Shown in pieces: positions 13,195 through 41,512 of a stretch of DNA of 64,000 bases. The position numbers and the translations under genes are program-made. Origin of the DNA: Diprion similis (Eukaryota > Arthropoda > Insecta > Hymenoptera > Diprionidae); NCBI RefSeq assembly GCF_021155765.1, contig NC_060107.1, positions 2,586,501-2,650,500 of the forward strand, written 5' to 3'. Position 1 is the stretch's first letter, and the number at the start of each line of letters is the position of its first letter. Under the pieces are notes generated by a model. The model searched no databases, was not told the origin of the DNA, and saw nothing but the letters and a program-made list of their open reading frames with translations.

Positions 13195-16100
13195 TGTCGG
13201 CATTGCCCGAAGGCCTGTGTCCAGTTACATGGTTCCTTCGGCAGGGAAATTGGAACGAATAAAGAAACTTGAAATATAAATATAAGACAATTACCTTGGA
13301 GAGCAGATTGGAATCGCGCGCTTTGTAAATTTATTTATAACCTGCGTGTTCACCTTTAATTCCAACTATTTCGTCACCGATTTATTACATATAGTATCAA
13401 CTCTCGATGTACATACATGCATAATTCCGGCATATCATAACGATCGCGCTGTCATCGAAAGTCGTGTAATTGTCTTCGAAGAATCGGAAGACCTCGGCCT
13501 TACGGCAATGGGGCATCTTGTTTCCTTTACGGGGGAAACGCTAGCCGGCATCGACAGGAGGAGGATACGCGGTGTCGAGTTCCCAATTTTCACCGAAACA
13601 ATTAATTGGCGTTCGTCCTTCCGTTTTCCGAGAAACTCGAACCCCTCGAAAAACACCCCCAGACTCACTAAATCTGCTTCAAATCTCTGTGTGGGTATGA
13701 AAACTTGCGTAAGAATCAATATTTCCAATTTTTTCATTTCAATTCCGACATATTGGTCACTCAAAATATTTATCCTTCCAAGTTTTTTTTTTTTTTTCTT
13801 ACCCCACCAGAATATCTTTCACCGCGATGACGAGTCTCGCCGCGCGTTTCACCTCCGACAATCAGCTGGATCATCCACGTCCACTTGGACCTGAACCGCT
13901 CGATTCTTCCCAAGATCCTCGAGGTCCGTTGACCGGCCGGAGGCTGTGTCGTCGAACAAAGGCCCCATTATCCGCGAACAGTCGAAGGTGTTCCACCGCC
14001 TCGCATACTCCCATCGTTCCTTCGGTGCACCACCTCCTCGGCGACGAGTCGTGAGAGGAACCCGGTGATCGGGGGTTCGTTTCTTCACCCCCTTCCCCTC
14101 CCTCCCTCCTCTCTGCCCCATCTCCATCCTTCGGCGCAGCGACGAGATGAAAAGGGGAAAGAGTGCGGAGGGCCTCCGGCTCTTCGTGAGCCTCGTGCTC
14201 CGAGGATCTTGGAGCTAGGTTACGGTTGCGGGGGCGTTCGCGTTCGGTCCCCCCCCCCCCCCCCCCCTCTCCTTGCCATCCGAGAGCCGCTCTCTCCTCT
14301 CTCCTCTCTCCTCTCTTCTACTCCCGCCCCCGGCTCCCGCCCCCGAGTCCTCGTGTACACGTACCTGAAACCTCTCGCTCACTGCAATTAGGAAATTGCC
14401 TCCGGTAGTTTGGTGCCCACCTCGTATTCATACCGCAATGCATCCGCACCGCTGCACCGAGCGAAGACGCGGGGACCGAGAGATCATCTTTGGTATTCTT
14501 CTTCCGCGTGCAGCGGTGATAATTTAGATGTGTATTGTATATTAGGGTGGTCGGAAAAAATGTACCGTTTCTTATTTCTTTTTCAAAATCACATGTTTCA
14601 TAGTCGTAGGGGAAACAGGAAATAAGACGTCTGATGTTATTATTTGAGCACTTAGTGTAGATACTTTTAATTTTTTATTTGATCAATAGGCGAAAATAAT
14701 TTTACTTATTTGTGGATTTTTGTTGCTCGGTAACGAGGCTATATGTATACTCGTTAATAAATGATCGATACATATTTTTCTAGGGAATTCAATGCTCTAT
14801 AAAAAAGGTCTGTTATCAGTTTTTTACGACTCTACTCTTTCAAACGTTGTTCGAAGTTCAAGTTGAAATCATGTAAAATATTCACTTTTCTTCGAGATTT
14901 TACAACGAAAATATTAGACTTGTCGCAAAGTATTGAGGTTTTTTTTCGCAAAGCGTAAAATAACGTTATTCAATTAATTTTCAACTGAAGCAAATTGTTT
15001 TTTTTTTTTTTTTTAAAAAAAGGGGTTTTTACAGTAAAATTTGTCAATAAAATTGTAATATTTATATTTATATATTTATTATTATTATATATTTTAATAA
15101 TTTGTAAAATAACATTGTCATTATTGTAATAATAAAGAAATAAAATTCCTCAAGTTGAAAATTAGTATACACGTCTTTTTCTATCTACTGTTAAGCCCGA
15201 ACTCTTTTTTTATTATGGTATGCATGTCTCAACTTAAATTGTTGTATTGATTTTACCATTAGTTTTTTAGACTTTGATTATCGTTACGAAACATTATTGC
15301 AGATTCAGCATCGTTACATCGGGGAAAAAAGAAAATTATGAATAGAAGTTATTAAGTTTTCACCGTATTCTAGCAGATTCTGAATAACCCGATGAGTCAG
15401 AAAATCTGATTTCTAATCCCAATCCACGAACCTTGTTCAATCCACTTTAGATAAACACTTGCCAAGATAAATATATCGATTCTCCTATACCTTGTATCCA
15501 ATTGCGCTTGCAACAATCGAAGACTGTACACCACAGTAATAGTACAAAGTTATTTCATACGTCACATTAAAGACTTGTGCCGAAATTCAGAGTCCAGCAG
15601 AACTTCCGAGTCCAGCATTAATATCCTAATTCGGCGTCGTCCGGAGTTTCATTTGCCTTACCATATTTCACCGTAAAGTGAAAAAAAAAAAAAAAAAAAA
15701 AAAAAAAAACACTAACAACAACAACGAACAGCGGAATACAATCACACGGAAGTGCAGCAGCATGCTTAATAGATTCGAAGAAGGCAAAGCGTTCCTGGTA
15801 GACAATCAGCATTCGACGATGAGTTGAGGAAGGAGGCGGCGCGCGTTGCATGCAAGTAGGAAAAGAAGACGAGTCGCTCACGGAGGGTATAGGAATATTG
15901 TTTATTATTAATATTTCATTTCGCGCTTATCATTTTCTCCGTTCTCTTCCCAGCCTCGGGCCAGAGTCAGCCCGGGGGCGTCGTTACTGCTCGAAGAGAG
16001 GCCCCCTCCCCCTCCCCCTCCCCCGCCCCCACCCCCTCCCCCACCCCCACCCCCACCCCCGGCCTCCACCTTCCGCAGCTCGCCGGAGGCGGCTCGCATT

Positions 16101-17276
16101 GTCCCATTTTCGCCGCAGGCGCTCGCCGCGAAGCCGCACCGCTATCTCTGCCCGTTTCCGCCCCCCACCTCCACCCCCACCCCCACTCCCACCCCCACCC
16201 CCACCTCCACCTCCAGCCGGCGGCCTCTACGGGCCCCCGGTGACCCCGACTCCCCATCCTTGAAGCCACCGCGAGCGGCGTCATCCTCGCTCACAACTCG
16301 CCCCCGGGGGCCGAACCGACTGCGACTCGCGTCTGCCTGCAGCGCCTCGGGCATCCCTGTTCTTGTCCTCGTCCCCCTCGTTACTCGCCAGCCTCCCCCC
16401 CCCCCCCCCCCTCCCCGGCCCTGCTTTCTTCCAGTCGGTTTCGCCAAACCCCGAAGCGTCTAACTCAGCTCGGATAAAGTGCGGCGGGAATACGAATTCG
16501 CGTGCAACGTCATTAACCGATCGGCAAAATTTAGTCTGACCTTCGAATTGTTATTTAAATTGAACTTAAAGTTGAAGTTAAAGTTAATTTGTTGATTATT
16601 GTGTTACGCGCGGGGGTGAGACGTGAGGGAGCAGTGGTAGTAATGATTGTAAATAATCGAAGATTAAAAATCGTAAGAGACTTACCTTTCGATGAACCGG
16701 TAATGTCATATTTAATGTAAAATACACGGCGATGACGGATTTTGTTTGAATGGTTGAGGCTAATTTATATTGATGAAATGGGATGGATGATCGTTCAGAA
16801 TAAATGGTTGAATATGGCTTAAGTTGGGTGAAGATAATGTATAGTGTTCGAATGATTGATTAATGAAATATGAACGATACGATAACAGGATGAAAAATTA
16901 TAATTATCTAGTGTGTGAACCTGAATGAAATTTAGACTTTTGCAAAGAGAGATGGAAATAGTTTTTATATATAAATATGAGAATGAAATAATGCATCGGG
17001 CGATAAACGCGGCTCAAGCTGCTGGAGAAAAATGCTTGATTGTTTAAATTGAAGAAGAGTTTTGAAAAAGGTACGTCGCAGCGTAAAAACTGCAAATTAT
17101 TATTCGCCAACCGGTTGAAAAAGGGAGTGGAAAACATCCACGAGCCTAATAATGAGTACAATTTTTTTAAACTACTCTGCGAGACCAGGAACACCTAAGT
17201 GCCACGGAACCATCGGAGGATTTTATGTCATAAGTATGGAGACGGATTATTTTCGTACACATGTTTCTTACGTGAC
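9413..17276. other. Repeat-rich non-coding stretch, no recognised gene
   Basis: No gene was recognised. The segment holds long C-rich tracts that create artificial Pro-rich or Gly-rich frames: a poly-C near 14250-14268, CCCCA-type repeats at about 16005-16215 and 17 Cs at 16395-16411. It also holds a GA microsatellite near 13157-13190, CTCTCCT repeats at about 14291-14319 and a poly-A at about 15680-15709. CpG-dense patches lie near 9830-9960 and 10660-11740. The right end (about 17080-17276) is homologous to the 3' flanks of loci C and D. Confidence 0.55.
13155..13192. repeat. GA microsatellite
   Basis: An uninterrupted run of AG dinucleotides inside non-coding DNA. Confidence 0.9.
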
Positions 17277-18006
17277 TCATTCATTGATAACATAACTTAA
17301 TCGATGATCAAGGACGCAGCATACGACGTCTACTTTAGGACATGCACCGACTGCATCTACCTTCGAGGATGTCATCAACATGCAATCGCTCCGACGGATG
17401 CACGAGCCACCTTGCCCCTCGCAGGAGACGTACAAAAGTGTGTTAGCTGAAATTGTATCGAGAAATAATAAATGAATGAAAATAAATCGATAGATATAGG
17501 TACTTTAATAATATAGGGAAAGGTTGAAAGAAAGGAATTTTGTGTCACTCACGAGGGTTCCACCTGCGTATATCATCCCCCGGCTGAGGGTTTGAGTGAG
17601 GATTCTCATGATCGTAGTTTTGTTCGGAGCCATGTTTGTTCTGAAAGTTTATACCGGAAAAATCGCGCGTAATAAACAGACAGCGAAGAAATTTTCAATG
17701 AACGCTGGTCTTGATGCACCGAATCCAAAAGCTGCCTCGCAGAGGCTTATCGACGTTCGATTTAACCGAAGTCAATCATTTTACCTTCGTCTGAACGATG
17801 CGAATTAAATTCGGTTCACAGTCTGCGTAATACTGCATTTAGCATACTGCCTCGAGAGTGACATTTTTGCGTAGGCATGCTGGGATTTTAGGTTTCTAGT
17901 TGGGATCAACAGGAACGCGATCGGTGAGGTGAAAGGGAGGTTCGGACTCACCTGGAAGGTTGACGAACGCCATGACGGTGAACAGAAAAATACAAACGTA
18001 GCGCAT
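17277..18006 (-). CDS. Locus A: secreted six-cysteine peptide, first module lost
   Basis: This is a three-exon minus-strand locus of the peptide cluster. Exon 1 (18006-17952) starts at ATG and encodes a signal peptide, MRYVCIFLFTVMAFVNLP, ending at CCAG|GTGAGT. Exon 3 (17446-17277) has a TTTCAG acceptor and encodes an intact module, C-x6-C-x5-C-x13-C-x6-CC (from CEGQGGSC to VVCC), then a short tail to TGA. The exon 2 equivalent (17654-17553) is degraded: its acceptor reads CG where the sister genes have AG, and indels removed all six cysteines, although it is still in frame by length. Exons 1 and 3 join in phase (an Ala codon), so skipping exon 2 would give a clean single-module secreted peptide of about 74 residues. 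The product may be functional in that form or the locus may be decaying. Function is unknown; the scaffold resembles clip or beta-defensin folds. Confidence 0.65.
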
Positions 18007-19162
18007 GTTGGCAAGCGATTACTCTTCGAGATCGTTCGTTGACTGTTGATGAATGCCGGTACTCTCCGTTGCACACGTGTTTGTATTGAACTGAAATGTC
18101 GATTCTCTTATCGCAGAACTAATTCATGAAAAGGCCGCATTCGCAGCAGTCATCATGCGTGCGATGTACGTACCTGGCTACACAAATCATGGCAGTTCTG
18201 ATATAAAACCAATGACTGTACAATGATTTGGGTGAAGCCCGATTGGACACTTGAAATAATCGGAAGCCGTATTGGACACAGAGATTTATTGGGCATAGCA
18301 CGGTTGGATGCCAGCGGTGGTGCGGTCATGGCTCCAATGGGCCCCAAAAAAGGAATAAATATACGAATGCTCGATTGAAATCAGGGTCGTATACACAAGT
18401 CCGGAACCCTCCGCGATGGGGATGAGTGTCTTATTGACGTGGGATGCATTTCGAGAACCTACTATGAGTGTGGAGGTGGTGCAATTGCAGTTCCTGGTCC
18501 AGAACAGAGAACAGAGAACCTAACCTACTTCTTTTAGATTTATTCAGTGTATAGTAGTGTCTCAATATTGTTCAATAAGAAGTACGATAAGTGGATGTAT
18601 CCAAATATATTATTTTATATCTGTATAAAATAATGTAAGTAAAAATTAAATGAAACCTTGAAATTCAAAGTACATGTTAGCGATTGGGATTCAAAAACGG
18701 TCGTGAACGCTAAACCAAATTAAGACAGCACTTGTCTTTGAGATTAGATTATAATATGAACGTACAAAAACGAAACAAAAAAACTACGAATTTTTTTTAT
18801 ACAAAACCAGGTTGATGGAGGCCTGTCCGCAACACCCCTGGTATCCAATCGTGTTATGTCCGATAAATCTCTGCGTCTAATATGACTTCCGATTATTTTG
18901 AGTGTCCGAAAGAGCTGGTGTCCAATCAGGCTTGACCCAAATCATTATACAGTCATTGGTTTCATATCAAAACTGCCGTGACTTGTGTAGCCAGGTACGT
19001 AGTACATCCCACGCATGATGACTGCTGCAAATGCGACCATTTTGTGGATTAGTTCTGCGATAAGAGAATCGACATTTCAGTTTAATACAAACACGTGTAG
19101 AAAATAAAGTCCCGGCATTTATCGACAGTCAACGTACGATTGACAAGAGTAAACGCTTGCTA
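18007..19162. repeat. Palindromic spacer of divergent pair A/B
   Basis: This is the upstream region shared by loci A (leftward) and B (rightward). The left arm (about 18007-18345) and right arm (about 18813-19158) are imperfect reverse complements, with a central unpaired segment. Both arms carry a 5' leader (GCTTGC next to the A start), a TATAAAACCAATGAC-like stretch in the left arm and its degenerate partner in the right arm, and repeated TTGGACAC motifs. The symmetry suggests an inverted duplication that created the divergent pair. Promoter elements of both genes should lie here. Confidence 0.75.
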
Positions 19163-19569
19163 GTCCAGTTATTATATTTTATTTAGGGGAGGGGCTTAGA
19201 AAAGCTTGACTTGGGATTGTCGACCAAGGGTGTCTCTGAGCTTTTTCAGCCATCTTGAAAGAAGGGGTGAATTTTGTTTTTTTGTTACAACTTGGCTCTT
19301 CGTCGTGATTTGAAAATTACGATCATGTACTTTTTTGTTGCGGTTTTAACGCTCTACAATTAAAGTCATATGAATTCTTCACCTACCGTTGATCGTTGTT
19401 GAGATATAACAAAATTTACCCGTTTTCAAGATGTCGAAGAAAGCTTATAGGAAATCTTGGTCGAAAATTCCAAGATAAGCTTTACTAAACTTCCATAAAC
19501 GATATTTAGAAATCAGCCCTCTCGGTTCATCTGCATTCAATCGCCTCATTTTGGACGTAATAACTGGGC
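19163..19569. mobile_element. MITE-like element next to the start of locus B
   Basis: A roughly 407-base element is flanked by TA on both sides (19161-19162 and 19570-19571). Its inverted ends read GTCCAGTTATTA and GCCCAGTTATTA. It splits the 5' leader: in loci A and C the GCTTGC leader runs directly into the start codon, while here the element lies between GCTTGC and the start and ends about 9 bases before the ATG. TA target and end sequence fit a non-autonomous Tc1/mariner-type element. A diverged copy occupies the same site in locus D. Confidence 0.7.
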
Positions 19570-19578
19570 TATGCCAAA

Positions 19579-20294
19579 ATGGGCTTCGTTAGTATTTTTC
19601 TGTTCACCGTCATGGCGTTCGTCAACCTTCCAGGTGAGTCCGAACCACCGTTTCACTTTACCGATCGAATTCCTGTTGATTTCAACTAGAAACCTCAAAG
19701 TTCAGCATGCCTGCGCAAGAATTTTACTCACAAGGCATCGAATAAATACAGTATTACGCAGACTGTAGACCGAATTTAATTCGCCACGTCCAGACCAAGG
19801 TGAAGTGATTGGCTTCAGCTAAATCGAACGTCGATAAGCCTGTGCGAGGCAGCTTTCGGATTCGATGCATCAGCACCAGCATCCAATGAAAATTTCCTCG
19901 CTGTCTGTTTATTACGCACGATTTTTCAGGTATAAACTCTGATTCCAATTTTTGCCCCGAAAAAGTCTGCATACATCAGGATGATTGCATGCTTTCTCGT
20001 CCGGACCATCGTTGTCAGACTAAAGATTACGTCTGCTGCATCCTTCTTAGTGAGTGATGAAAGTTCCTTCCTTTAAGCTTTCCATCGTATTAAATTATCT
20101 ATTCGTGTCGACTGATTTTCATTCACTTATTTTCCGTCAAAGCAAATGTAACCACATATCAGGTGGCCGCCTGCACAGACCAAGGAGGCGTCTGCATCGT
20201 TCCGGATGAGTGTATGGCGAGCATGATTGCAAAAAAAGAGCTAGCTCATATATGTCCTGTAGAAAACGACGTATGCTGCATTCTGGCCGACTGA
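19579..20294 (+). CDS. Locus B: secreted two-module six-cysteine peptide
   Basis: Three exons give a 108-residue product. Exon 1 (19579-19633) encodes the signal peptide MGFVSIFLFTVMAFVNLP. Exon 2 (19930-20049, TTTTTCAG acceptor) encodes module 1 with spacing C-x4-C-x5-C-x8-C-x6-CC, from CPEKVC to DYVCC. Exon 3 (20143-20294, TCAAAG acceptor) encodes module 2, C-x6-C-x5-C-x13-C-x6-CC, from CTDQGGVC to NDVCC, then four residues and TGA. All introns are phase 1. Both modules end in Cys-Cys, and the C2-x5-C3 and VCC features recall a shortened clip domain, while the overall order also fits beta-defensin-like peptides. No transmembrane segment follows the signal, so it should be secreted. An immune peptide, protease-cascade regulator or venom/salivary component are all possible; the sequence does not decide. 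Confidence 0.85.
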
Positions 20295-21531
20295 TTGATG
20301 CACGAGATAATGGGAGCGGTGGATTGATCGTCGATTAGATTGTGTTATCAATGAATCTGTCAAAAATATGTAAGAAAATAATCCGCATCCATGCCCATGG
20401 AGGGGAGGGTGGTGGCGAGTTCGTGTCGCGAGAAATCTGATAGAAGATAATAATTTGGCTTTGAAACATCAAGGCAACATTCCAACTGTTTACAGATTGC
20501 TTTTATTTTCACCCCTAATAACGAACTCCTGCAGTATTATAGGTATATTATATGTTCGATGTTGAATTTCGAAAAGTGCACGCGATCAAAGCTGGAAAGA
20601 AGCATGAGAGCAAAATTTTTTTTTATCATTTCCGTCGTATCGATGTCGATGAAAAATCATGGCGATGGGCCCGTTTGGATACTAGCAGTATTGCGGACAC
20701 GGCTCCGTCGGGCCCGAAATATTGAAAAAAAAATTGAATGCTCGATTGAAACCGAAATTGGCAATCGTGGAAAAGAAATGCTGAAATCCTATTTTTAGAC
20801 AATTTGATTTTAATAGTAAGGGTTGGTCAGTTAGTGAATTTAAAAAGTTTCACAAGTTAGCCGTTAAAGTTAGAGCGCTGATTCTAGTAGTAGTCAAAAG
20901 TAAATAAACTCTCGTAAGGGAGCGTCCATAAATTATTTAACGCGCTCGAAATGGGAGGAAGTCAAGGAATTCGTTACCCTTTGTTACATCGGCGAGGGGG
21001 TTGGGGGGGGGGGGGGGCTTGGTATCGTCATTACGTAATGATAATATTTCATTAAACAATACACTTAATTTTTTATTACTTAAATGTAAATTATTATCGT
21101 CCACCAGATTTTTCGCAACACTAAACTGGCCACCCTCCCCTCTCGCGTTCCTTCAGTTGGTTTCACCAAATCCAGAACCTTCTCGTCAACTGATCGACAA
21201 AATTTACTCTAACCTTCGAATTGTCATCCGGATTATCTTATCTCCGTAAAAATATTGCAGGGAGTTGAGACGTTTTGTCGATTCTTTGAAATAATAATTT
21301 GCTAACCAGTTAAAGAAGGGAGTAGAAAAGAAAAAACATCCACAAGCTTGACGATCCATACAGTTTTTTCAAAACACTTTGTAACAACAGAAACATCAAA
21401 AGTGTTATGGAACCATCGGAGAATTTTGGGTACATAATAGGCATGGAGGCGGATTAATTTCTTACATATTCTTGAGTAAAACACAATCTAACCGATGATT
21501 AATCCTCCGCTTTCGTTATTTTGCGCATCGA
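20295..21531. other. Convergent spacer between B and C
   Basis: No gene is seen. A fragment at about 20667-20760 is homologous to part of the A/B spacer (around 18305-18390), including a GGATNCCAGC-like start and the ATGCTCGATTGAAA end. Poly-G lies at about 21002-21017. The segment at about 21190-21500 is the 3' flank of locus C and is the inverted homologue of the 3' flank of locus D. Confidence 0.6.
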
Positions 21532-22235
21532 TCAGCGGGTCAGGATGCAGCATATGTCATCGGTGTGAGGACATAGGTGAGGTTCGTCTACACTCGCGAC
21601 GCAATCATTGTAACTGACGCACGTGCCGTTGTGCTCCCCGCAGGCACTCTGCTCACGTCTTGCCCCCGAAAGTGCTTTGACGAATAATAAGGGGATGAAT
21701 ATCAATGGACAGATGTAGATATTCCAATATGGTGGGAGGTTGAAAGAGGGGAACTTTTATCACTCACCAATGCTGCAGCAGACGTAGTTTTCGTCCGGAC
21801 ACTGAAGCCCTTTCCGAGTAACTGTGCAGACACTCTCATGTCTACAATGATCTTTGGGGCAAATTTTGATCTGAGAGTTTATCCCTGAAAAATTGTGCAT
21901 AATAAACAGAGAGCGAAGAAATTTTCGATGGACGTTGGTGCTGCTGTACCGAATCCAAAAGCTGCCTCACACCGGCTCATCGACGTTTGATTTAGCCGAA
22001 GTCAATCACTTCACCTTGGTCTGAACGATGCCAATCAAATTCGGTTCACAGTCTGCGTAATACTGCATTTATTCGATGCCTCGAGAGTGAAATTTTTGCG
22101 CAGGCATGCTGGGCTTTTAGGTTTCTAGTTGAGATCAACAGGAACGCGATCGGTGAAGTGAAAGGGAGGTTCGGACTCACCTGGAAGGTTGACGAACGCC
22201 ATGACGGTGAACAGAAAAATACAAACGTAGCGCAT
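21532..22235 (-). CDS. Locus C: secreted two-module six-cysteine peptide
   Basis: Three minus-strand exons give a 104-residue product: exon 1 22235-22181 (signal MRYVCIFLFTVMAFVNLP, identical to locus A), exon 2 21884-21768 and exon 3 21674-21532. Module 1 is C-x4-C-x5-C-x8-C-x6-CC (CPKDHC to NYVCC). Module 2 is C-x6-C-x5-C-x9-C-x6-CC (CGEHNGTC to DDICC), a shorter third loop than in B and D and within the range of beta-defensins. Splice sites are consensus (TTTCAG, TCAAAG, GTGAGT) and all phases are 1. The exon 1 and promoter region is almost identical to that of locus A, but the mature exons are strongly diverged. Secretion is well supported; biochemical role is unknown. Confidence 0.85.
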
Positions 22236-23934
22236 TTTGGCAAGCGATTACTCTTCGAGATCGTTCGTTGACTGTTGATGAATGCCGGTACTCTCCGTTG
22301 CACACGTGTTTGTATTGAACTGAAATGTCGATTCTCTTATCGCAGAACTAATTCATGAAAAGGCCGCATTCGCAGCAGTCATCATGCGTGCGATGTACGT
22401 ACCTGGCTACACAAATCATGGCAGTTCTGATATAAAACCAATGACTGTACAATGATTTGGGTGAAGCCCGATTGGACACTTGAAATAATCGGAAGCCGTA
22501 TTGGACACAGAGATTTATTGGGCATAGCACGGTTGGATGCCAGCGGTGTTGCGGTCACGGCTCCAATGGGCCCCAAAGAAGGAATAAATACAGAAATGTG
22601 TGATCAATATTTCTATTCACCTCAGAGGAAAAGCTGAAATACGTATTCAAAGTACCTACTTTTTAATAAAAAGACAAATTTAAAGTTTTATATAAAGATA
22701 CTCTAAGTTTAATTCAGTTAGTTTTGTTAGAAAATTGTTTTTAGCAATTGAAATTTGAATTTAAAAAAGACTGAATAAATAATAAATGTTGATTATTAAT
22801 AATGAGCTCAATTTTTTTCTGCATTTAGTTTGCAATTTTGTTTTGTCCGGCGTTTCTCCATTTTCCTCGACATCCTCTCGCCTCCACTTGCCAACGCTTC
22901 GACTTTTCTTACGATAACGCTATACTCTCAACCTGTCCTGCAATTTTCATTCAGCTTCACGCCACTCGTTATCGCCATTGCCTTGCTAATTCTATTCCTA
23001 ACTATCCTGGATTCTTACACTTTTCGTGCGCTTGTACTTCTTGTCTTAGAGTCACTCCTATCCCAACGTTCGAATAATCAACTTCAACTTCCAACCTCAG
23101 TTCCAGGCTAAATAATCATTTCACCTATTTCTGACACACTTCGCCTGGTTACACAATTACAAATTCCTGAATTTCTAATAAAGCCTTCATATGACTTTTT
23201 GAAAGTTTTAAAAATTTCTTGAAAATTTCCAGAGAAAAATAGTAAATCGAGAAAGCAGAAAACCCTAGTTGCAAATCAGTAGTAGATGGTAAACAGAGAA
23301 CCTAACCTAATTTTTTCAGATTGGTTCAGTGTATAGTAGTTCCTCGATTTTGTTCAGTAACGAGTTCGATAAGTGGAACTATCACCTGTATAGAATAATG
23401 TAAGTGGAAATTAAATGAAACCTTGAAATTGAAACTACATGGTATCGATCGGAATCCAAAAACGTCCGTAAATGCTACACTAAATCGAAACAGCACTTGT
23501 CTTTGAAATTAGTTTTACATTTTGTAATATAAATGTTCAAGTAAGAAAAAAAAAAAAACATTCGAAACTTTTCTACTCAGAACCAGGTTGATGAAGGCCT
23601 GTCCGTAACACCCCCATATCCGATCGTATTATGCCCAATAAATCTCAGCGTCCAATACGACTTCCAATTATTTTTAGTGTCCAAAAGAGCTGATGTCCAA
23701 TCAGGCTTCATCCAAATCATTGTACAGTCATTGGTTTTACATCAGATCTGCCGTGATTTATGAAGCAAGGTACGTTCATCGCACGCATGATGACTACTGT
23801 GAATGCGGCCTTTTTAGGGATTAGTTATGCGATAAGAGAATCGACATTTCAGTCCAATACAGACACTTGTAGAACATAGAGTCCCGGCATTTGTCGACAT
23901 TCAACGAACGATTGACCAGAGTAAACGCTTGCTA
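22236..23934. repeat. Palindromic spacer of divergent pair C/D
   Basis: This is the counterpart of the A/B spacer. The left arm (about 22236-22574) matches the A arm base for base over long stretches, at an offset of 4229. The right arm (about 23585-23931) is its imperfect reverse complement and matches the B-side arm at lower identity. Between them lies about 700 bases (about 22590-23285) that is absent from the A/B spacer and has no recognised coding content. Confidence 0.7.
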
Positions 23935-24324
23935 GTACAGTTATTATATTTTATTTGGGGGAGGGGCTGAGAAAAACTTGTATTGCCAACCAAGAGTTTC
24001 TCCGAGCTTTTTCAGCCATCTTGAAAAAAGGGGTGAATTTTTTTTTTTGGGACGACTCGTAAAATAAAAATTATGATCATATACTTTTTTTTGCGGTTTT
24101 AACGCTCTACAATTAAAGTCATATGAATTCTTCACCTTCCGTTGATCGTTGTTGAGATATAACAAAATTTACCCGTTTTCAAGATGGCGGAAAAAGCTTA
24201 TAAGAAATCTTGGTTGACAATTCCAAGATAAACTTTATACTAAACTCTCTTAAACGATATTTAGAAATCAGCCCTCTCGGTTCATCTGCATTTAATCGCC
24301 TTATTTTGGACGTAACAATTGGGC
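23935..24324. mobile_element. MITE-like element next to the start of locus D
   Basis: This is a diverged copy of the element in front of locus B, at the same position in the leader and flanked by TA (23933-23934 and 24325-24326). Its ends are decayed (GTACAGTTATTA, and CAATTGGGC at the right), which is expected if the insertion predates the duplication of the gene pair. Confidence 0.65.
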
Positions 24325-24333
24325 TATACCAAA

Positions 24334-25046
24334 ATGGGCTTCGTTAGTATTTTTCTGTTCACCGTCATGGCGTTCGTCAACCTTCCAGGTGAGTCCGAAC
24401 CACCGTTTCACTTTACCGATCGAATTCCTGTTGATTTCAACTAGAAACTTCAAAGCTCAGCATGCCTGCGCAAGAATTATACTCTCAATGCATCGAATAA
24501 ATGCAGTATTGCGCAGCTGTGAACGAAATTTAATTCGCATCGTTCAGACCAAGATGAAGTGATTGGCTTCAGCTAAATCGAACGTCGATAAGCCTGAGCG
24601 AGGCAGCTTTTGGATTTGGTGCATCAGCACCATATCGTCCATTGAAAATTTCTTCGCTGTCTGTATGTTACGCACAAATTTTCAGGTATAAACTCTAAGA
24701 AAGAGCCGTGCCCCTCGACAATGTGCAGATATGATGGTGATTGCAATAATTATAGAGTGGGGTATGAATGTTCGTCAAAAAGATTCGCCTGCTGCCTCGA
24801 TCGTGAGTGATAAAAGTTCCTTCCTTCAGCCATCCATCGTATTAAATTATCTATTTGTGTCGATTAATTTTCATCTATTTATTATCTGTCAAAGCGACTC
24901 CAGAATCACGTCAGGTGGCCGCCTGCACAGACCAAGGCGGCACCTGCATGTTTATGGATGAATGCACCGAGACCCACAACGCGCGCACAGCCCTATTTGA
25001 TCTTTGTCCTGAAGAAGGTGACGTATGCTGCATGGTGGACGCGTGA
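24334..25046 (+). CDS. Locus D: secreted two-module six-cysteine peptide
   Basis: Three exons give a product of about 107 residues: 24334-24388 (signal MGFVSIFLFTVMAFVNLP, identical in DNA to locus B), 24686-24802 and 24895-25046. Module 1 is C-x4-C-x5-C-x8-C-x6-CC (CPSTMC to RFACC). Module 2 is C-x6-C-x5-C-x13-C-x6-CC (CTDQGGTC to GDVCC), acidic, ending four residues after the Cys pair. Introns are phase 1 with TTTTCAG and TCAAAG acceptors. Module 2 begins QVAACTDQGG as in locus B, so B and D are sister copies, but module 1 shares little beyond the cysteines and the INS start. Role unknown, as for B. Confidence 0.85.
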
Positions 25047-25400
25047 TCGATGCACGACATAAGAGGAGCGATGGATTGATCATTGGTTAAATTATGTTAT
25101 CAATGGATCTGCCAAGAACGTGTAGGAAAATAATCCGCCTCCATGCCTTTGATATACCGAAAATCCTTCGATGGTTTCGTAACACTTCTTATATTCCTGC
25201 TCTTACAAAGTGCTCTAATAAAATTGTGTGCACCATAAAGCTTATGGATGTTGTCTCTTTTCTACTCCCTTTTTTAACTGGTTAGCAAATTATCATCTGA
25301 AGTAATCAACGAGACGTTTCAATTCCCTGCAATATTTTTACGGGGGTAAGGAAATCCGGATGACAATTCGAAAGTTGGACTGAATTTTGCCGTAGATTTT
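25047..25400. repeat. 3' flank module shared with loci C and E
   Basis: From about 25093 to 25370 the sequence is the reverse complement of the C 3' flank (about 21190-21500) and is related to the A 3' flank (about 17080-17280). It includes a CTAACCAGTTAAA-like block and a GAAAATCCTTCGATGG block. Loci D and E run tail to tail over this short spacer. Confidence 0.6.
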
Positions 25401-25977
25401 TGCACAATCGTGAGGCAATCATGGTAATTGAATTGCTTTGGCGAATAATAAATGGATGAATATCGATCGACAGATGTAAATATTCTAATATGATGAAAGG
25501 TGGAAAGGAGGGAACCTTTATCACTCACCAACGCTGCAGCAGTAGTCGTTTTTGTTTTTGGAGCTGCGCAAAGATTTTCATGTCTGCAATGTTATTTGGG
25601 GCAAATTTTGTTCTGAGAGTTTATCCCTGAAAAATCGTGCATAATAAACAGAGAGCGAAGAAATTTTCGATTGACGTTGGTGCTGCTGTACCGAATCCAA
25701 AAGCTGCCTCACACCGGCTCATCGACGTTTGATTTAGCCGAAGTCAATCACTTCACCTTGGTCTGAACGGTGCCAATCAAATTCGGTTCACAGTCTGCGT
25801 AATACTGCATTTATTCGATGCCTCGAGATTGAAATTTTTGCGCAGGAATGCTGAGCTTTTAGGTTTCCAGTTGAAATCAACAGGAATTCGATCGGTGAAG
25901 TGAAACGGTGGTTCGGACTCACCTGGAAGGTTGACGAGCGCCATGATGGTGAACAGAAAAATATCAACGCAGCGCAA
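25401..25977 (-). pseudogene. Locus E: broken six-cysteine peptide gene
   Basis: All three exon positions can be seen on the minus strand but each is damaged. The exon 1 equivalent (25977-25923) keeps most of the signal-peptide frame and the GTGAGT donor, but the start codon is TTG where sisters have ATG. The exon 2 equivalent (25626-25529) has an in-frame TAA after the CPK start of module 1 and a deletion before the Cys pair. Of exon 3 only about 35 bases remain (25435-25401), equivalent to the TYNDC-like middle of locus C, followed by repeat-related flank. It is closest to locus C. No functional product is expected. Confidence 0.8.
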
Positions 25978-26558
25978 TTTGGCAAGCCATTACTCTTCGA
26001 GATTGTTCATTGGCTATTGACAAATGACGGCACTTTGCCGTGCAGCCACTATTATGTGTATAAACAATGGGTTCACACGCATGCACTTTATGGCCTGCAT
26101 GATCTGTATGTGTAAATACAATTCACTCATATTCTAATCATTGGAGATATCACCTGCGTTCAATTTGCCTGTGGAAAAGTACGATCGGTCTTCCCCGATG
26201 TATCGGCAAAGTGCCAGCGTTTAGCTGCGGATTGTAAAAGTTTCCGGAGTCGCAACAACGTCCGACGTTGGTAATAAGAATCGAATAGTACGATATTTGT
26301 ATTCCAGAATCGACCATGTATTACAAAAATACAGAGAGACACGAACTAGTTGAAACCAGAATTTTTTTACTCAAATTGTCACGCTCCAAACTGAGTAAGA
26401 TTAAACTCCACGGACATAAAAATTGTTGCGGAACCATCGCAGGATTTCATATCATAAATAAGGATGTAAATTTTTTCTTTCACATTCTAAACTCATTTAT
26501 TCAAAAAACACAATCGAACCGATGATCAATCCACATCTCCCGTCGTCTCGCGCATCCA
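25978..26558. other. Spacer between loci E and F
   Basis: No gene is seen. The part adjoining F (about 26400-26540) again carries the CGGAACCATCGNAGGATTT block found downstream of the other loci, so the 3' flank module was copied with the gene. Confidence 0.5.
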
Positions 26559-27597
26559 TCAGTGGATCAGGACGCAGCATACCTTGTTGTTAGGACATGG
26601 ACCAGGACGTTGTAGGCTTGGATTGCATTTCTTCATGCACTCTCCACCGTAGTGTCTGCATGCGGTCTCTTGATTTTTTTTCACTAAAATTGTATCGAGA
26701 AATAATCAGTGATCGAAAATCGATCCTCGCAAAAAGGAAAGAACTATCATCACTCACCAACGCTGCAACAGACTTGCTGTTTGTTCGGACATTCAGCCCC
26801 CTTCCAAAGAATGTCGCAGTTATCCTGTGACATGCAGTTTTCCGTCGGACAAGATTCACTCGCAGAGTTGCCTGAAAAAACGTGCGTGATTAGCGGTTCG
26901 GCGATAAAATTTGCAGCGATCGCTTATCTTATCAATTTTCGATTTAGCAGACGTCGAACACTTCACGTTTGTATGACCGACGCAGACTGACTTCGGTTCA
27001 CAGTGTGTGTGCATAATGCTAGTCTAAAATATCCGACACTGTTGATAGAAGTAGGACACTTTCTTCGTTTACCAGATATATATCAATCAGAACGTTTACA
27101 TACAATTCTCACTGAATAATGACACTCTGACTTCTCCAGTCTACCTCTTTATACATCTTTTTTCTTTATAGAACATTATTCTTCTAGAGCTTCCTATCTT
27201 TATAGATCATTCTTGCTCCTTCCTTATCCGCTGTTCCCTTATACATTTACCGACCGTCGTTCTACTCTATCCCTTCTTTACCTACCGATAAAATTGTCTT
27301 AGAAAACAGTTGAATTGATCTGATTTCAACAGACATCTCTATACAGATAGATCCCTTTTTTACCTACCGATAAAATTGTCTTAAAATTGTCTAAAATGAA
27401 GAGAAAAAAAAAAAAAAAACAGTTGAATTGCTCTGATTTCAACAGAGATGAAAATTTTGCGAAAGCATGCTGGGATCTTTAGGCTAACTCTTGAAATCAG
27501 TGGAAATTCGATCGGTGGAATGAAATCAGAGTTCGGACTCACCTGGGAGGTTGACGAGCGCCATTACGGTGAGCAGAAAAATGAAAACGGAACGCAT
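26559..27597 (-). CDS. Locus F: secreted two-module peptide, beta-defensin-like second module
   Basis: Three minus-strand exons give a 97-residue product: 27597-27543 (signal MRSVFIFLLTVMALVNLP), 26871-26758 and 26683-26559. Module 1 is C-x4-C-x5-C-x8-C-x6-CC (CPTENC to QQVCC). Module 2 is C-x6-C-x3-C-x9-C-x5-CC (CRHYGGEC to NKVCC), basic and with a GG before the second Cys, which closely follows the spacing of animal beta-defensins. Acceptors are TTTTCAG and ATTTTAG, donors GTGAGT, and phases 1. It is the most diverged member and has the longest first intron, which contains a local direct repeat (27281-27343 and 27362-27446). An antimicrobial role is plausible by analogy only. Confidence 0.85.
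27281..27446. repeat. Local direct repeat in intron 1 of locus F
   Basis: Two copies of a segment containing CTACCGATAAAATTGTCTTA and CAGTTGAATTG-TCTGATTTCAACAGA lie in tandem, the second interrupted by poly-A. Confidence 0.7.
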
Positions 27598-33035: not shown

Positions 33036-36000
33036 CTGTAGCGCAAAAGAAAAGTGTATGGATAAACGAATATTCTGGGAAAAAAACTAAAGACTATCGA
33101 ATAAGACTTTAGGTAATCCTCACCTGCAGCTCTCCCCCGTAATACATTAGCTCGGCGTTCTGGATGACCTGTTCGTTGCTGAGATGCTGGAAGGGTTTTT
33201 CCCGGGCGAGGCTCATCACCTCCCAAAGTGTAACGGCGAAGGACCAAACGCTGCTGGCGCAGGTGTATCTGTCCTGTAAAAAGACGTAAAAAGGCACGAG
33301 GAGTCAAAACGACGGAAATCCGAAACACGGATGAACGAATGAATTAATGAACGAATAGAGAGGTTGACACTCACCAATAACACGCTCTCCCATGGCAGCC
33401 ATCTGATTGGCGCCGGAGGCCTTCCACCGATGTCACAATAGTCCTTCTTATATAGATCGCTGCACATCGCGATGTCGGTCACTTTTACGGCGTAAGAACG
33501 TCCCAGGAGACAATTGCGAGCTGCCAAATCCTTGTGCACGAGATTCCTCGACTCGAGGTACCTCATCCCGGACGCTATTTGCGCGCCCATGTAGAGTAGG
33601 CAGCTCTGGCTGTGGGATATCGGTGATCAGAGTTACGAAAATCGAAGTTACAGGCAAATCTCGTTTTTCATCGCCGGCAATTAGGCAACCGTAGTTACAT
33701 CTGAGGTCTGTTTCCCTGTTATAAGTGTATCTTTGGTTGCCTATCCGTCGGCGTTGAACGGCGAGTTTCGTCAGAAATAAGTTCGTCGTTTGAGTTAAAT
33801 TGTCACTGACTCCCTCTTACTGACTGAGGTACTTCATCCCCGACGCTATTTGCGTTTTGGAAGTCGGTGATCAGGGTTAGGAAAATCGGAGTTACCAGAG
33901 AATTTCGCTGCTCGACGCCGGCAGTTAAGCAACCGTAGTTACGTTTGACGTCTGTATTTCCGCCTTGATACAGGCAGACAGGCAACTGAAGTTACATTTG
34001 AGGTCTGTCTTCCTGTCATGAAGTTAATTACGGTTGTCTATTCGCCGGCGTTGGGTGGTGAGATTCGTCGGAAATAAGTTCCAGACATTTTTCTCGCACA
34101 AATCGTACACTGATTCCCGATCGGTCGTATTTCCACGAACCTGAGAGCCTTCAGACTGCAACTAGTCCTCGTTGTACCGGTCAAAGGAACGCTGTACTGC
34201 AGATAATGAGCGAGGTCTCCCAGTTCCGTATATTCCATGATGGTCCAAGGAGCGGGGTCGCCGGCACAGACGCCGAAGACGCGGGCCAGGTTCGGGTCGA
34301 TGAGGTTTGAGAGAAACCTAACCTCCCGAAGGGCTTCGTCACCGTCGATCGGTGGCACCCGGGCAACAACCAGTTTTCCGACGCCGGTAAGAACGGCGCC
34401 GAGTCCAACCGTCTCGCAGATGATGACCTGCATGGATTTGAAGGCGGGTGAGGAACGGTGTCGTGCAGGAAGTCAGGGCGGGCGGAAAGAACTCGGTTGT
34501 AAAATTGACGATCGATTATATTAGGAGGATAATTATTCCTCGAAGGTAGGGGGAAAACTAATCAGGAAGTATGCATCATCAGGATAGAATTGGGGCGTCG
34601 AGATTAAGTGGGTAATTGGACGTCGTTAAGGGAAGCTCGCGAGATTGTTGAGATTATTGAATTTGCCCCGTACGAGTGGAGGGGAAGGGGGGGGGGGGGG
34701 GCTGCATATCGACTAGTTACGACAATCATTAGCCTCGTTGTAAACTCACCTCTCCGATGTGGCCCGAACCGAGTTTCTCAGCAACGCGGAGACACTGTCT
34801 CGGTATTTCCGTCGGTTCTGTTTCTTTGCATTTGTAGGGCCTGCTCATACTCGGTGCGATGTTCCAGCAGACGACGGGGGCCGGTATCTGATGTGAAGTT
34901 GAACAAAAAGGGAACTTTCAAACTTTCTTACAGTGCCAACTGAGCAAGTTTCTACACCAGGTACAACCGAAGAAGCACAAATGTAGTACCAGTTGCACGC
35001 ATACTGAAAGGACTGTAAGGTGACTTGGAAGTTCGGAAAGCGAAGCGCGGTTAACTGTCGGGCAAACTAGAACCGCATCTCCACTAAGCAGTTAGCAAAC
35101 TTGCCACTCAATTTCCAACCGTCATAAACATGAGGTACAGGTATATGATACGCATATGATACGACGAGGGCGGACGGTTTTAACGCTGTCGTGGAGGCAC
35201 CGCGGAGGTGTCGGCTAATTAACGAGACGTCAACTTCCATTATTTTAATACTATAACGTGGGGCCCGAGACTGTGTGCTGCGGGTTCGTTCCAGCCGACC
35301 AGACGTGAGCAGACTTCGGAGGATTTATGGCTGTCTGCACCTCGCACAACGCCACCCGATTCATTAACGAACCGCAACGAGACGGAATTCAAGATCTCGA
35401 GTTCGGGGGGAGCGGCAGGGGGGGGGGGGCAAAGCGCCTCATTCCTCCGCCCCTGTGGCAGCCCGCCCGCGCTCTCTTATCGCGTTCACAGTGCGCAGTG
35501 ATAATTAGTGGCAGTCTTACACGAACCTTGTGTTTCTCCTTGGGGGCGGTATGCCATCGTTTAGAATGCCAGAGGTCAAGGTCCCTCTGGGGAGAGGCTG
35601 ACGATACTACAGGAGCGTTTGTCCCCCTAGAACCGGACTGCAGCGTTCTGTAATTGTGCGAATGTTTCGAGCCGGATTTACCCTGATGCGAAGTGGGCGA
35701 GGCGTAGCTGCACCCCGACGAACCCTTCACTACCAAATCCGTCTTTACTCCACCTCGTGGTTTACTCTCGTACGCGTCGGACGAACCTCCGATATCCTCG
35801 TCCTCGATGTCTTCAAAGTCCTTTACTGCGTCCAGAGACACTGTTAATAGAATAAAAAATGTTTTTGTTTTCCTCCAATTTCGTATAGAAATTTTCTTTC
35901 GTTGCGCCTCACGGTACGCAGCCTGCTTCGCAGTGTTGCAATTTGAGTGGCTTGAACTCAGGCGCGTTAATTCGCTGCCAGTATCGTGTTTTGTGGAACA

Positions 36001-38252
36001 AAAACGTCCTCTAAGACCAGCTTGAGTTTTTATTTCAGCATAAAAAATAAGAAAAACGTAAGGCAGAAAAAATAAAAATGAAATAAAATTATCCACAAGT
36101 GTTTCTTTTCTTGCAAGCTCTTACCAGTCTTAACCACCGTCGCGTAGGTCGGCTCGAAGGAGAGCGACTGAGCAGCAACGAGGGGCGAGTGAAATTGTTC
36201 CATTGTCAGGGACTCGTGCATGCTTAAATCTTCGGCTGCGCCAGGGGAACCGGCGTGGCCGTTGTCGCGAAGCATTCCACTTGGTGTTAGGTTCAGCAGC
36301 AGACCCTTCAAACAGGTGTAAAACGTAGAGAAAAGATAACGACACCATTAATCCAATGATGGAGGGTTCGAATCTCTGCACAGTTCTCCCCCCCCTCCCC
36401 CCCCCCCCTTTCTTACTCTTTTGATCGATTATTTCTCACAAACGATCGATGTACGAATCCGTATAATAACTATTAATCACCTTCATGTTGATCGCGAATC
36501 CAAAGGGATTCTTTAAGACGGTCGGTGAGTTTTGTAGTTTCTGTCGCCGGCTGAGCAGTAAGATGATAACGAACACCAGAAGAAGAAGAAGAGTGATGGC
36601 TGTAAGGACGCCGATTAAAACCTCGACGTGTTCCTGGCCTTTTTCTCTAGCTGTAACTGATTTTCATAGTTTTGTAAGATACAATTTATTATACGCATAT
36701 AAAAGGAGAATGAGAAAATAGATGAGGGCAGCAATATTCCTAGACAAAGGAAGGCTCGGGACGCCTGGCCATAATCAATCTCAATATTATTACACGTGAT
36801 TAAATTTGCCTGTAAGGTATATTAATATGCAATGTTAGATTACAACGGGACTCTTAGTTCTCTTGGTCTAACCATCTACCTATACTTGCACCCTTTCCCC
36901 TTGGTAAAACGCCAGGGAGGAGGAAGCTGCGGCGCCTAAACTTGGTCCATTGTTGGCAACAATAGAGTCATACTTAACGTCAATTCCTTGCCGTCGCGGA
37001 TACAGCGTTATGGTATCTATATGTAATATGTATGTATGTATGTATGTATGAACATTGAACATGTATATTGTATGTACGAGTGTACGCGCAGTGTATCAGT
37101 TACATTATTAAACCGTCCAACCGCGCTACCTTGTATAACGGAAGTCTAGACCATTTCTCTGAGAAGTGTTTCAGGCCCGTTTACCCTACATTGTTCTTGC
37201 TCGGAGGCTGTTACATACCTTTACAGCATCCCGGCTTTCCTGGCACTTGAGAAATTTCCTATTCTATAAGCCGCTCGCGTCTTCCTTGAATGGAGGGGGA
37301 GAAAAAATCAGCGAATTATTAGCTACGCCATAATGTCGCGGAACGAAACGACGGAAGAACGGTTGCACAACGAACATTTTCGAAAAGGGCAAGGAACTTG
37401 TATGTTTAATTTGAAATTTGAAAATCTTTCCTTGCGCAAGGGCCACCCTGCTATGATTTTTTCCTTTCTTGGCTCCTTATTCTTGTTCGTCTTCCTTTCG
37501 TGAATCATTCTCCTTTCTTCATCTGTAGCGAAATTTATTGATAAAGTTGTTCCTACAGTTCCTGTCGGATATTATACGTAGAAATAGGTTCCACGACTAA
37601 CTTATAGGTATAAGCGCGTGGGTATAAGTTCGGTATAAGCTGGCTACCTTATAACTTTTTCAATAAATTTTGCAAAGACGTTTGAAAAACGGAAGAAAAA
37701 GTATAAAGGAAGAGAGTATGAGAGCAAAAAAAATTAGAAAGGAGAAAGTCTACTTCGATGAGGATATCTCGAACCCCCTTTCGTTGCTTATGCGATATCG
37801 TATTACTCTTTAGCGTTATCCGAGAAAGGATGCTTCCGTTCAAGAATACGAAGAATATCATTAAAAATTAGCCTAGGAATGTTATTATAGTTATAATGGA
37901 TCTAAAATAGTACGATATAAATTCAAGCAATATTAAAATATCGGTTTAAATTAATAACCGAAAACGAAGTAAATATGATTATACGCAGTTCTATATCTAC
38001 CTAAATTCATGCACGACGAAAGCAAAGAGCGAGGAATAATCTGGGCCATGTTTCATCAGAACTGCGTCCCTCCTCACGTATTGTAGAAAATATACATTTT
38101 CCTTCGAAGTGTAAACCTTATGCAGTATATATACATGTATTTACAGAATATAGATTGCCTCGGTGCAGTGGAGGTTTTGATACATGGCGCCCGTATTCGA
38201 TCGCGTAGAAGAATTCATTCATACATATGCATTGTGTGGGTGCGTACGTATT

Positions 38253-38296
<44 letters not shown>

Positions 38297-41200
38297 CTAT
38301 ACAATACACATGCACGCGTGTAAATCTTTCGGTTGAAATATGCATTTCCCTACGTATGTATTCAGTGCCGTAGCACAATCTGGTATAACAAGCTTCCAGC
38401 AGCGGCATCACCACGGTGTGCACTTGTCCCCTAGCGAATTTTCACCACATATATATGCATGATATATACACGCACACACACACACACATGCACACAGTAT
38501 TTCAGCACATGGCAGATACATTTGCGTACAGACAATCATCAACAGGGCGACTTGGATTTGTAAGAGTATCAATAAAGTGTGCTGGAAATAAAGTGAGCCG
38601 ATGAGAGAGCGACTAACTATAAAGATAGACTGAGTTGACCCTCTAGAGAGTTTTTATTCTATGGTCTTCTGCTCTAGTGAAGCTAAGATAGACGCTATGC
38701 TAATTGTATGAAATTCTGTATCTTGTTATATGGTAATAAATGCATTATAAACAAAGGTTAAAATGTGCCATGAGACAAAATCCTGCCCCATAATTATCTT
38801 TGCTAGATAGTGTTAAGGATTATTTTTCCGAAACGAGTTGCATGTATTCTTATTTTTGCCAAAAAACTGGAAACTAACACACTTCTTCTGATCCTAAATT
38901 CGAGGATAAATATCGACTATAGAAAAGTAGTTTTCGTAAAGGGACACCCTGTACGTGTTTCGACGATGAAATGGAACAGCGCGTAGCCCGTCTGACACGT
39001 CGGTTAATTCGCGTTATGTATGCATTATACACGGTATAATACACGGACTCACACAGGTTTAAGTGGAGAACGAGATATATATATGCATATCAGAAACACG
39101 TAGCTCCGGATATTCCGGCTGGCTGCAACTCGGTTCCCCCTTTCATCCTCTCGTATCAACTCTGCGGGTTATCCGCGTGCGGACCGCGAAGCCGAAGGCG
39201 CGACTCTGCCGCCTTATACGAGCCCCTTTACCTAATCCGACTAATTGTTTACGTTAGCTGGTGGAAGTTGCCGCGTGAATTATAAACCGCACCCCCGCCC
39301 CTGCGCGACGCCACTTTTGCTAATCGCATCTACGCGGGGTAAAGAATAGAGGCCTCATTTTCCTAATGAAGTTACTCGAGCCCGCTAGCTGGCTCTCTCG
39401 TTTTCCACCCCCGCCGTCATCTCCCTTTTGGATCTCGAATAACGCACGCTTGTGTCTGCACGCCTGATCACACCTACGTGCCTTGACGATTTTCATCAAC
39501 CAAAGTCATCAGACGTGTAATCCCATGCACACTACGCAGGTGGCAATAGTAGGTACACAAGCGGGGTTCTGCGCGCAGATTCCCTTACTGGCATGTTATC
39601 GACACTTCAGTCGCTTTATAGCTCAGAAACAAACTCTTCTCAACGTTTATAGTTTTCACCGTGATTACAATGACTTTCTTTTTTTTTGAAGTTGAGAATG
39701 ATTTGTGTCTGAGCTACGAAGAGGCTGGAATGTCGGTAAGATGCCGGTAACGGAATCTGTACGCAGAACTCCCCTTTTATACCTACTAGGAAATACGAGC
39801 GGCAGATTTATGGCTTCGGATGCTGTGATTCCTCTTACAGCTGCGGATGAACCGAACTGCGTATCGATTAAGCGTCGTTCCGAAGAATAAGGTCGCTCTA
39901 AATAATTGACCTAGTGATGCTGCTTCACACCGGCATGCGCAACTGGGCAGTTTCATATAGAATAAGGTTGGTAATATTGCTGTGTGGGAGGGTGAAAGGG
40001 TCGGACGGGGATGCAGAATGCCTCGGCGTTTGTGTTTTGGCTTTACGTAATTTGGGGAATGCCTCCGCGCACCGTTCTAATCAGCTCCAATCAAGCCTAA
40101 TCAAATCCTAATCCCGAAACCCTCCGCTGAATAGGAACCCGACAAAAATACCTCGCTTCGAGCATACCAACTGCACCCACCTACCCCGTAAAACATCCGT
40201 CGTTTCATTGGGCTTTTTGAATTGTACTTACTCGTTTGTAAAGTCAGGTCCAATTCCGGACTCACTGGCGCTTCGTTCACCCCAATTTCGAAGCTGGTCA
40301 CCTCGTCCGTTGTGTTCTCGGGCAGACTGGCTGCTCGGAAAAGAACGCGTCACCGTTATAGTGAAATTTGCGTTTGTAGTTTTCGTTCAGCGTCCACATC
40401 GGCAGACGCAATCATTGCACACAAGTGAACTTCTCTCATCCATGAACCCATCTATAGAACCACCGTCTAACTCCCTAATGCAATCGCGAAGAGAGATGTG
40501 TACCTTGGATGCTGTGCAGCTAATTGCATCTGACGATGAGGACCATGTAGTGAACTCACAGGCCTCGAAGACAACCTCGCTAATCATGATCCATCGGTTT
40601 GCGAAGTGAAGGTGGAGCTTGACGAATCGGCCGGTTCTGCCGTGGAGACCGATCGTTACGTTCCTGGCGTTTTCGAGTACAGTGTCGGGCATGTAGGAGT
40701 AGGAAATGGGCTGACCCTTGTAGAACTGACCACCAATGCTGAACCAGATATCCGCCCTGGCGAAGACCTGCCATAATTTCGTCGATACATATTCCAACAG
40801 TAGTAGGTACGATGTCGCATTGCGATTTGGAGAAGCGGACAGGTGATGATCAACGTACCTGGACGTCGCGTGAGAAGTAGTTGTTGGCGTATAAGTGGAC
40901 GGCGTGAAAGATCCTGATTTCATCGAACTGAAAAACGAGCTCGAGGAAGTTCTCCTCGAAGGAATCGCTCATCCAGGCAACCCATCCAGTACCTGAAGTG
41001 GAATCATTATCCTGTAGAATTTAGCATCCTCGTGAACGTCGAGGGGTGGATGTATGGCTTATACTGTCCATCGACCCAGATTCCCAGTGTAAAACCTTTC
41101 AACCGTCTTTTCGCGTAGACTTATAGCAACCCGTTGCAGTGGTGTACACAATACAAGGATAAAGTTTTCAACTACTTGGCAGCTGATACGAAGGTGGATG

Positions 41201-41481: not shown

Positions 41482-41512
<31 letters not shown>

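What the first reader, a model, noticed from the sequence alone, without database searches (positions are those of the whole stretch)
17277..27597. Cluster of secreted peptides built from two six-cysteine Cys-Cys modules
Six linked loci share one plan: signal exon, module 1 exon (C-x4-C-x5-C-x8-C-x6-CC) and module 2 exon (C-x6-C-x3/5-C-x9/13-C-x5/6-CC), all phase 1 introns. Seen directly: cysteine spacing, splice sites, signal peptides. Known: clip domains and beta-defensins both have six Cys with an adjacent C-terminal pair. Inference: this is a family of tandem mini-clip or beta-defensin-like effectors, one exon per module. I do not recognise it as a named insect family.
Basis: partly seen in the sequence, partly recalled or inferred. 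Interest (0 to 1): 0.82.

Follow-up and report, generated by a model that had tools for sequence, protein, structure and literature searches.

The report
Sawfly double beta-defensin-like peptide cluster
A pine sawfly carries a small cluster of fast-changing genes for secreted peptides built from two cysteine-rich modules, the second of which looks more like a vertebrate-type beta-defensin than like an insect clip domain, although what the peptides do is not known.

Summary
The genome is Diprion similis (four encoded proteins equal its database entries). The cluster is real, but four of the six loci, not six, have the full plan: signal exon, module 1 exon, module 2 exon, phase 1 introns (B, C, D, F). 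Locus A has lost the module 1 cysteines and the exon 2 acceptor; E is a pseudogene. Neodiprion has an orthologue of F. No Pfam or NCBIfam model passes its cut-off on the whole proteins. A family profile picks out chicken AvBD11, a double beta-defensin with the same signal/domain/domain exon plan (E 9e-4); 0 of 300 cysteine-fixed shuffles score as high. The predicted structure of F points weakly to beta-defensins and the double-domain tick carboxypeptidase inhibitor; that of B to nothing. The CLIP model finds none of the modules. Against this, Pfam beta-defensin models do not pick out the cluster genome-wide, and three of four peptides are acidic. Among B, C and D mature exons are 55-68% identical, introns 74-91%, signal exons 95-100%. 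Best reading: a diprionid family of tandem beta-defensin-like secreted peptides, diversifying against a changing target; a binder or inhibitor role fits better than membrane killing. Function is inferred.

The parts
17952..18006 (-). Locus A, signal exon
   Evidence: ATG to GT donor, phase 1; 100% identical to the signal exon of C
17553..17654 (-). Locus A, decayed exon 2: no cysteine, acceptor CCGG instead of CAGG
17277..17446 (-). Locus A, module 2 exon (6,5,13,6,0) with a 12-residue tail after CC
19579..19633 (+). Locus B (LOC124404257, P0001), signal exon
19930..20049 (+). Locus B, module 1 exon (4,5,8,6,0)
20143..20294 (+). Locus B, module 2 exon (6,5,13,6,0), stop included
22181..22235 (-). 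Locus C (LOC124404293, P0003), signal exon
21768..21884 (-). Locus C, module 1 exon (4,5,8,6,0)
21532..21674 (-). Locus C, module 2 exon (6,5,9,6,0), stop included
24334..24388 (+). Locus D (LOC124404207, P0002), signal exon
24686..24802 (+). Locus D, module 1 exon (4,5,8,6,0)
24895..25046 (+). Locus D, module 2 exon (6,5,13,6,0), stop included
25529..25977 (-). Locus E, pseudogene: remnant signal exon (25923-25977, TTG where others have ATG) and exon 2 with a stop (25529-25627); module 2 not recognisable
27543..27597 (-). Locus F (LOC124404190, P0004), signal exon
26758..26871 (-). Locus F, module 1 exon (4,5,8,6,0)
26559..26683 (-). Locus F, module 2 exon (6,3,9,5,0), the most beta-defensin-like module, stop included
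18510..20395 (+). Duplicated segment carrying B, 82% identical to 23292-25147 carrying D; with A/C (17635-18361 and 21865-22590, 94%) it shows that a divergent A-B gene pair and the C-D pair are copies of each other
   Evidence: self-BLAST

Best explanation
Shown: a family of small proteins with a hydrophobic leader and two six-cysteine modules, one per phase-1 exon, found so far in Diprion and Neodiprion sawflies, expanded in Diprion similis by copying of a divergent gene pair, with decay of two copies. Supported, not proven: the modules, the second above all, have the beta-defensin type of fold, so each protein is a tandem (double-headed) beta-defensin-like peptide laid out like avian AvBD11 and the tick carboxypeptidase inhibitor. 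Inferred: the conserved leader, cysteine frame and introns with very unlike inter-cysteine loops mean that the loops face a varied or changing partner. Because three of the four intact Diprion peptides are acidic, and the five full-length relatives all end exactly four residues after the last CC, I think it most likely that they bind or inhibit a protein target (a peptidase of pathogen, parasitoid, gut or haemolymph) through loops or the short C-terminal tail, rather than lyse membranes.
Against: The fold is weakly supported: mean pLDDT 64.6 for F and 60.0 for B; best Foldseek E for F is 0.1, and the model of B has one irrelevant match. Module 1 has no profile relative. Genome-wide, Pfam Defensin_beta lists 10 places, none in the cluster, and Defensin_beta_2 has F module 2 only fifth of 6 at E 4.4. 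The Pfam hit of F module 2 alone (23 bits, cut-off 21) is matched by 2 of 60 cysteine-fixed shuffles, the best with a better E. Another family, conotoxin Toxin_18, scores best on two of six module 2 sequences (E 0.00025; 0.0017 and below its cut-off on whole P0002). dN exceeds exon dS only marginally (bootstrap fraction dN<=dS 0.054-0.326 in three pairs), and exon silent sites are also more diverged than introns, so homogenised introns or a higher exon mutation rate are not excluded. No expression, disulfide or activity data.
Confidence: 0.55

Rival explanations
1. [quoted passage not shown]
For: Module 2 shares G-x-C, C-x5-C (not F) and V-CC with clip domains of this same genome. Its profile scores 2.1-9.7 bits on six Diprion clip domains, with 1-17 of 200 shuffles as good, and 2.2-8.7 on three more (no shuffles). 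The PAP-2 clip domain is the first non-AvBD11 match (E 0.54). One of 6 module 2 sequences has CLIP_1 at E 0.44. Clip and beta-defensin cysteine arrangements are said to be alike (PMC11335235 passage).
Against: The CLIP model lists 15 places at E<=10 in the genome, 11 over the cut-off, none in the cluster. Nine clip domains read from that list are spaced 9,5,16-26,9,0 against 6,3/5,9/13,5/6,0 for module 2 and 4,5,8,6,0 for module 1. No protease domain is joined. AvBD11 domains score higher than any of the nine clip domains (17.1 and 15.5 bits).
Confidence: 0.2
2. They are classical antimicrobial peptides that kill microbes by binding membranes, as cationic beta-defensins do.
For: F is weakly cationic (+2, pI 8.0), as is its Neodiprion orthologue; tandem duplication and diversification are usual in antimicrobial peptide families (general knowledge); AvBD11 is antimicrobial (PMC9363672 passage).
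Against: B, D and C have net charge -7, -7 and -3. No excess of kappa-B-like sites: 6 in the window against 6.4 expected; one lies 330 bases before F. An insect-type defensin match is present elsewhere in the genome, so no gap needs filling.
Confidence: 0.2
3. They are a sawfly branch of the arthropod double-domain carboxypeptidase-inhibitor-like family (tick inhibitor; lepidopteran and centipede relatives), and inhibit metallocarboxypeptidases with the C-terminal tail.
For: Tick inhibitor 1zlh is a Foldseek match of F (rank 8, E 2.6); such double-domain proteins are reported from Lepidoptera, a tick and a centipede (PMC11335235 passage); a four-residue tail after CC in 5 of 5 full-length relatives. 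The tail mechanism itself is recalled, not from a call.
Against: No sequence match to the tick inhibitor in the PDB searches with family sequences or profiles; E 2.6 is not significant; tail letters differ in all five.
Confidence: 0.25

Closest known systems
AvBD11 (avian double beta-defensin, PDB 6qeu)
   Same: Signal exon plus one exon for each of two six-cysteine modules (PMC9138766 passages); profile match E 9e-4; first Foldseek match of F
   Different: Bird protein, heparin-binding and antimicrobial as reported (PMC9363672 passage); module 1 spacing differs; three Diprion members are acidic; no evidence of common descent beyond the profile score
Tick carboxypeptidase inhibitor and arthropod double-domain relatives (U-TPTX10-Tp1 of the oak processionary moth and others)
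   Same: Two beta-defensin-fold domains in one small secreted arthropod protein (PMC11335235 and PMC6339383 passages)
   Different: No sequence match found; inhibition untested; sawfly tails variable
Clip domain (insect serine proteases)
   Same: Six cysteines ending in CC, G-x-C and V-CC motifs, C2-C3 spacing of 5 in most modules
   Different: Longer loops in the nine Diprion clip domains read (9,5,16-26,9,0), no protease domain here, not found by the CLIP model
Panusin and big defensins
   Same: Beta-defensin-type cysteine array in arthropods; phase 1 intron before the cysteine-rich exon of big defensins and beta-defensins (PMC7203481 passages)
   Different: Single module; no big defensins in insects according to that 2020 review
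Aphid BCR4
   Same: Insect cysteine-rich peptide with the beta-defensin bonding pattern (PMC9604261 passages)
   Different: Single module, other structural motif, aphid-restricted; not compared by sequence here
Nasonins of Nasonia (multi-unit members)
   Same: Hymenopteran peptides with one cysteine module per phase-1 exon in nasonin-6 (PMC2853521 passages)
   Different: CS-alpha-beta (insect defensin) type

Membership tests
Beta-defensin | Cysteine spacing C-x5-7-C-x3-5-C-x8-11-C-x4-6-CC (table in PMC9604261) | tested here: inconclusive
   3 of 11 modules fit (module 2 of C, F and Neodiprion P0005); module 1 has x4 and B, D, A module 2 have x13
Beta-defensin | Match to Pfam Defensin_beta or Defensin_beta_2 | tested here: not met
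   F module 2 alone passes the Defensin_beta cut-off, but 2 of 60 cysteine-fixed shuffles match too, whole proteins do not pass, and genome-wide the cluster is absent from 10 places or fifth of 6
Beta-defensin | Profile similarity beyond cysteines | tested here: met
   AvBD11 E 9e-4; 0 of 300 shuffles as good; module 2 profile on four beta-defensin-type sequences 8.5-17.1 bits with 0-2 of 200 shuffles as good; module 1 profile only on AvBD11 domain 2 (2 of 200), not on the other three (43-96 of 200)
Beta-defensin | Three-stranded fold | tested here: inconclusive
Beta-defensin | Disulfides 1-5, 2-4, 3-6 | not testable with these tools
   no coordinates or chemistry
Beta-defensin | Cationic mature peptide (usual, not universal) | tested here: not met
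   B -7, D -7, C -3; F and P0005 +2
Beta-defensin / big defensin | Phase 1 intron just before the cysteine-rich exon (PMC7203481) | tested here: met
   both introns phase 1 in 4 of 4 intact genes; common in exon-shuffled modules, so weak
Clip domain | Match to the CLIP model | tested here: not met
   0 of 15 genome places lie in the cluster; related hits only CLIP_1 E 0.44 in one of 6 module 2 sequences and CLIP_SPH_mas E 6.9 in P0005
Clip domain | Loop lengths of clip domains | tested here: not met
   9 distinct Diprion clip domains, read from 9 of the 10 fetched CLIP loci, have 9,5,16-26,9,0; L033 gave no pattern match
Tick carboxypeptidase inhibitor-like | Two beta-defensin-fold domains | tested here: inconclusive
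   fold support for module 2 of F only
Tick carboxypeptidase inhibitor-like | Inhibition of metallocarboxypeptidases | not testable with these tools
   needs an assay
Insect (CS-alpha-beta) defensin | C-x-C near the end and match to Defensin_2 | tested here: not met
   modules end in CC, no C-x-C; Defensin_2 lists 6 places, none in the cluster

The most novel reading that the evidence does not exclude
Pine sawflies possess true members of the beta-defensin (trans-defensin) superfamily in double-domain form, with the same signal/domain/domain exon plan as the avian AvBD11, and one lineage has turned them into a rapidly diversifying set of acidic, double-headed protein binders; this would extend the superfamily to Hymenoptera.
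Probability: 0.25. Interest if true: 0.75.

Novelty: new variant of a known kind. Interest (0 to 1): 0.5.

Why it matters
A 2020 review says that no trace of big defensins was found in insects and names lobster panusins as the only other beta-defensin-like array in Ecdysozoa (PMC7203481, passages); later papers add aphid BCR4 (PMC9604261) and a double-domain peptide of a moth (PMC11335235). A double-module family in a plant-feeding hymenopteran, with introns far better kept than mature exons, gives a compact natural series (one member conserved in two genera, three fast paralogues, one that may have lost a module, one dead copy) to test whether beta-defensin-like tandem peptides arise by descent or by convergence, and what the loops are chasing.

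Tried and rejected
Pfam beta-defensin hit of F module 2: first looked like proof; rejected as proof because 2 of 60 cysteine-fixed shuffles give it too and genome scans do not pick out the cluster. Model of B: no useful match. Module 1 profile: no relative. Conotoxin-type hit Toxin_18: E 0.0017 on P0002, below its cut-off, E 0.00025 on a module 2 alone; 2 of 60 shuffles of F module 2 match it, at best 0.014. Set aside, not disproved, because the model is 31 positions long and the match stops before the CC pair (residues 66-95). 'Replacement of a lost insect defensin': Neodiprion lecontei is reported to lack a clear defensin (PMC10542623 passages), but Diprion has a good Defensin_2 match on another contig, so dropped. 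Immune promoter sites: no excess. Strong codon-level positive selection: not claimed. NCBIfam: best E 0.069, a fimbrial model, one of 5 proteins. No clip domain appears among the Foldseek or VIA-align rows; that absence shows little.

Searches for print. In their listings I saw no paper on this sawfly family; most subscription journals are not covered. Papers were seen as search listings or 'find' passages only, none in full.
Full report
What is there. The window lies in the genome of Diprion similis (C3:2586501-2650500 of the held assembly; four encoded proteins equal named Diprion similis entries). Reading the region, scanning for the cysteine pattern and rebuilding exons gives six loci: A(-), B(+), C(-), D(+), E(-), F(-). 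B, C, D and F are intact three-exon genes for 97-108 residue proteins with a hydrophobic leader ending near LPG, module 1 (4,5,8,6,0 in all four) and module 2 (6,5,13,6,0 in B and D; 6,5,9,6,0 in C; 6,3,9,5,0 in F). Both introns are phase 1 in all four. A has lost the cysteines and acceptor of exon 2; E is dead. The loose module pattern occurs 9 times in the cluster, nowhere else in the window, and never in 40 Markov sequences.

How far the family goes. Three searches of 5.8 billion proteins found only the four Diprion proteins and one Neodiprion protein, P0005 (3 of 3 candidates at E<=10; 5 of 65). P0005 is 73% identical to F and has its spacing and tail length, so F is the conserved member. 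Genome-wide, B finds 12 places (11 in the cluster and one weak place on C12, E 0.88) and F finds 7, all in the cluster. The protein search needs shared five-residue words, so remote relatives could be missed.

How it grew. Self-comparison shows that the divergent pairs A-B and C-D are copies: 17635-18361 against 21865-22590 at 94%, and 18510-20395 against 23292-25147 at 82%. Along B and D identity runs upstream 90%, exon 1 100%, intron 1 91%, exon 2 59%, intron 2 87%, exon 3 68%; introns against exons 2+3 differ with Fisher p 1e-15. The same alternation is seen in B-C and C-D, and in A-C and C-E, where decay of A exon 2 and of E adds to it. dN in mature parts is 0.70-0.97 against 0.10-0.32 for introns among B, C and D. 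Exon silent sites are also raised (dS 0.46-0.69), and dN over dS is not clearly above 1 (bootstrap fraction dN<=dS 0.054-0.326). Diversifying selection is the simplest reading, but a special exon mutation process or homogenised introns are not excluded.

How it may work. Shown: leader, cysteine frame, four-residue tails in 5 of 5 full-length relatives, acidic charge in B, C and D, weakly basic F. Inferred: a secreted, disulfide-locked double head whose loops vary against a partner. Membrane killing fits acidic members badly. A peptidase-inhibitor or binder role has arthropod precedents of the same two-domain layout (PMC11335235, passages). Clip-like regulation of protease cascades is a real rival because the two module types share motifs.

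Verdict. A new variant of a known kind (tandem beta-defensin-like peptides), of moderate interest, rising if the fold and descent are shown.

Noticed in passing
34038-45340: Minus-strand exons of a discoidin-domain receptor tyrosine kinase: kinase part at 34038-34433, DS-like domain at 40387-40923, F5/8 type C domain at 44903-45340. A handy synteny anchor.
   Followed up: partly
L038 (G000:C1:7104506-7104592): A clear insect-type defensin match (Defensin_2, E 1.3e-6) in Diprion, although a clear defensin was not found in the related Neodiprion lecontei (PMC10542623 passages).
   Followed up: no
17277-25046: Silent sites of the mature exons are more diverged than the introns beside them among B, C and D (dS 0.46-0.69 against 0.10-0.32); cause unknown.
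   Followed up: partly
17553-17654: Locus A exon 2 has kept an open frame while losing every cysteine and its acceptor; exon skipping would leave a one-module peptide.
   Followed up: partly
L036, L037 (G000:C12:12779614-12797011): Short-loop clip domains (9,5,16,9,0), three CLIP matches close together on C12; two were read.
   Followed up: partly
16002-16215: Two C-rich hexamer arrays (CCCCCA units) just before the cluster.
   Followed up: no
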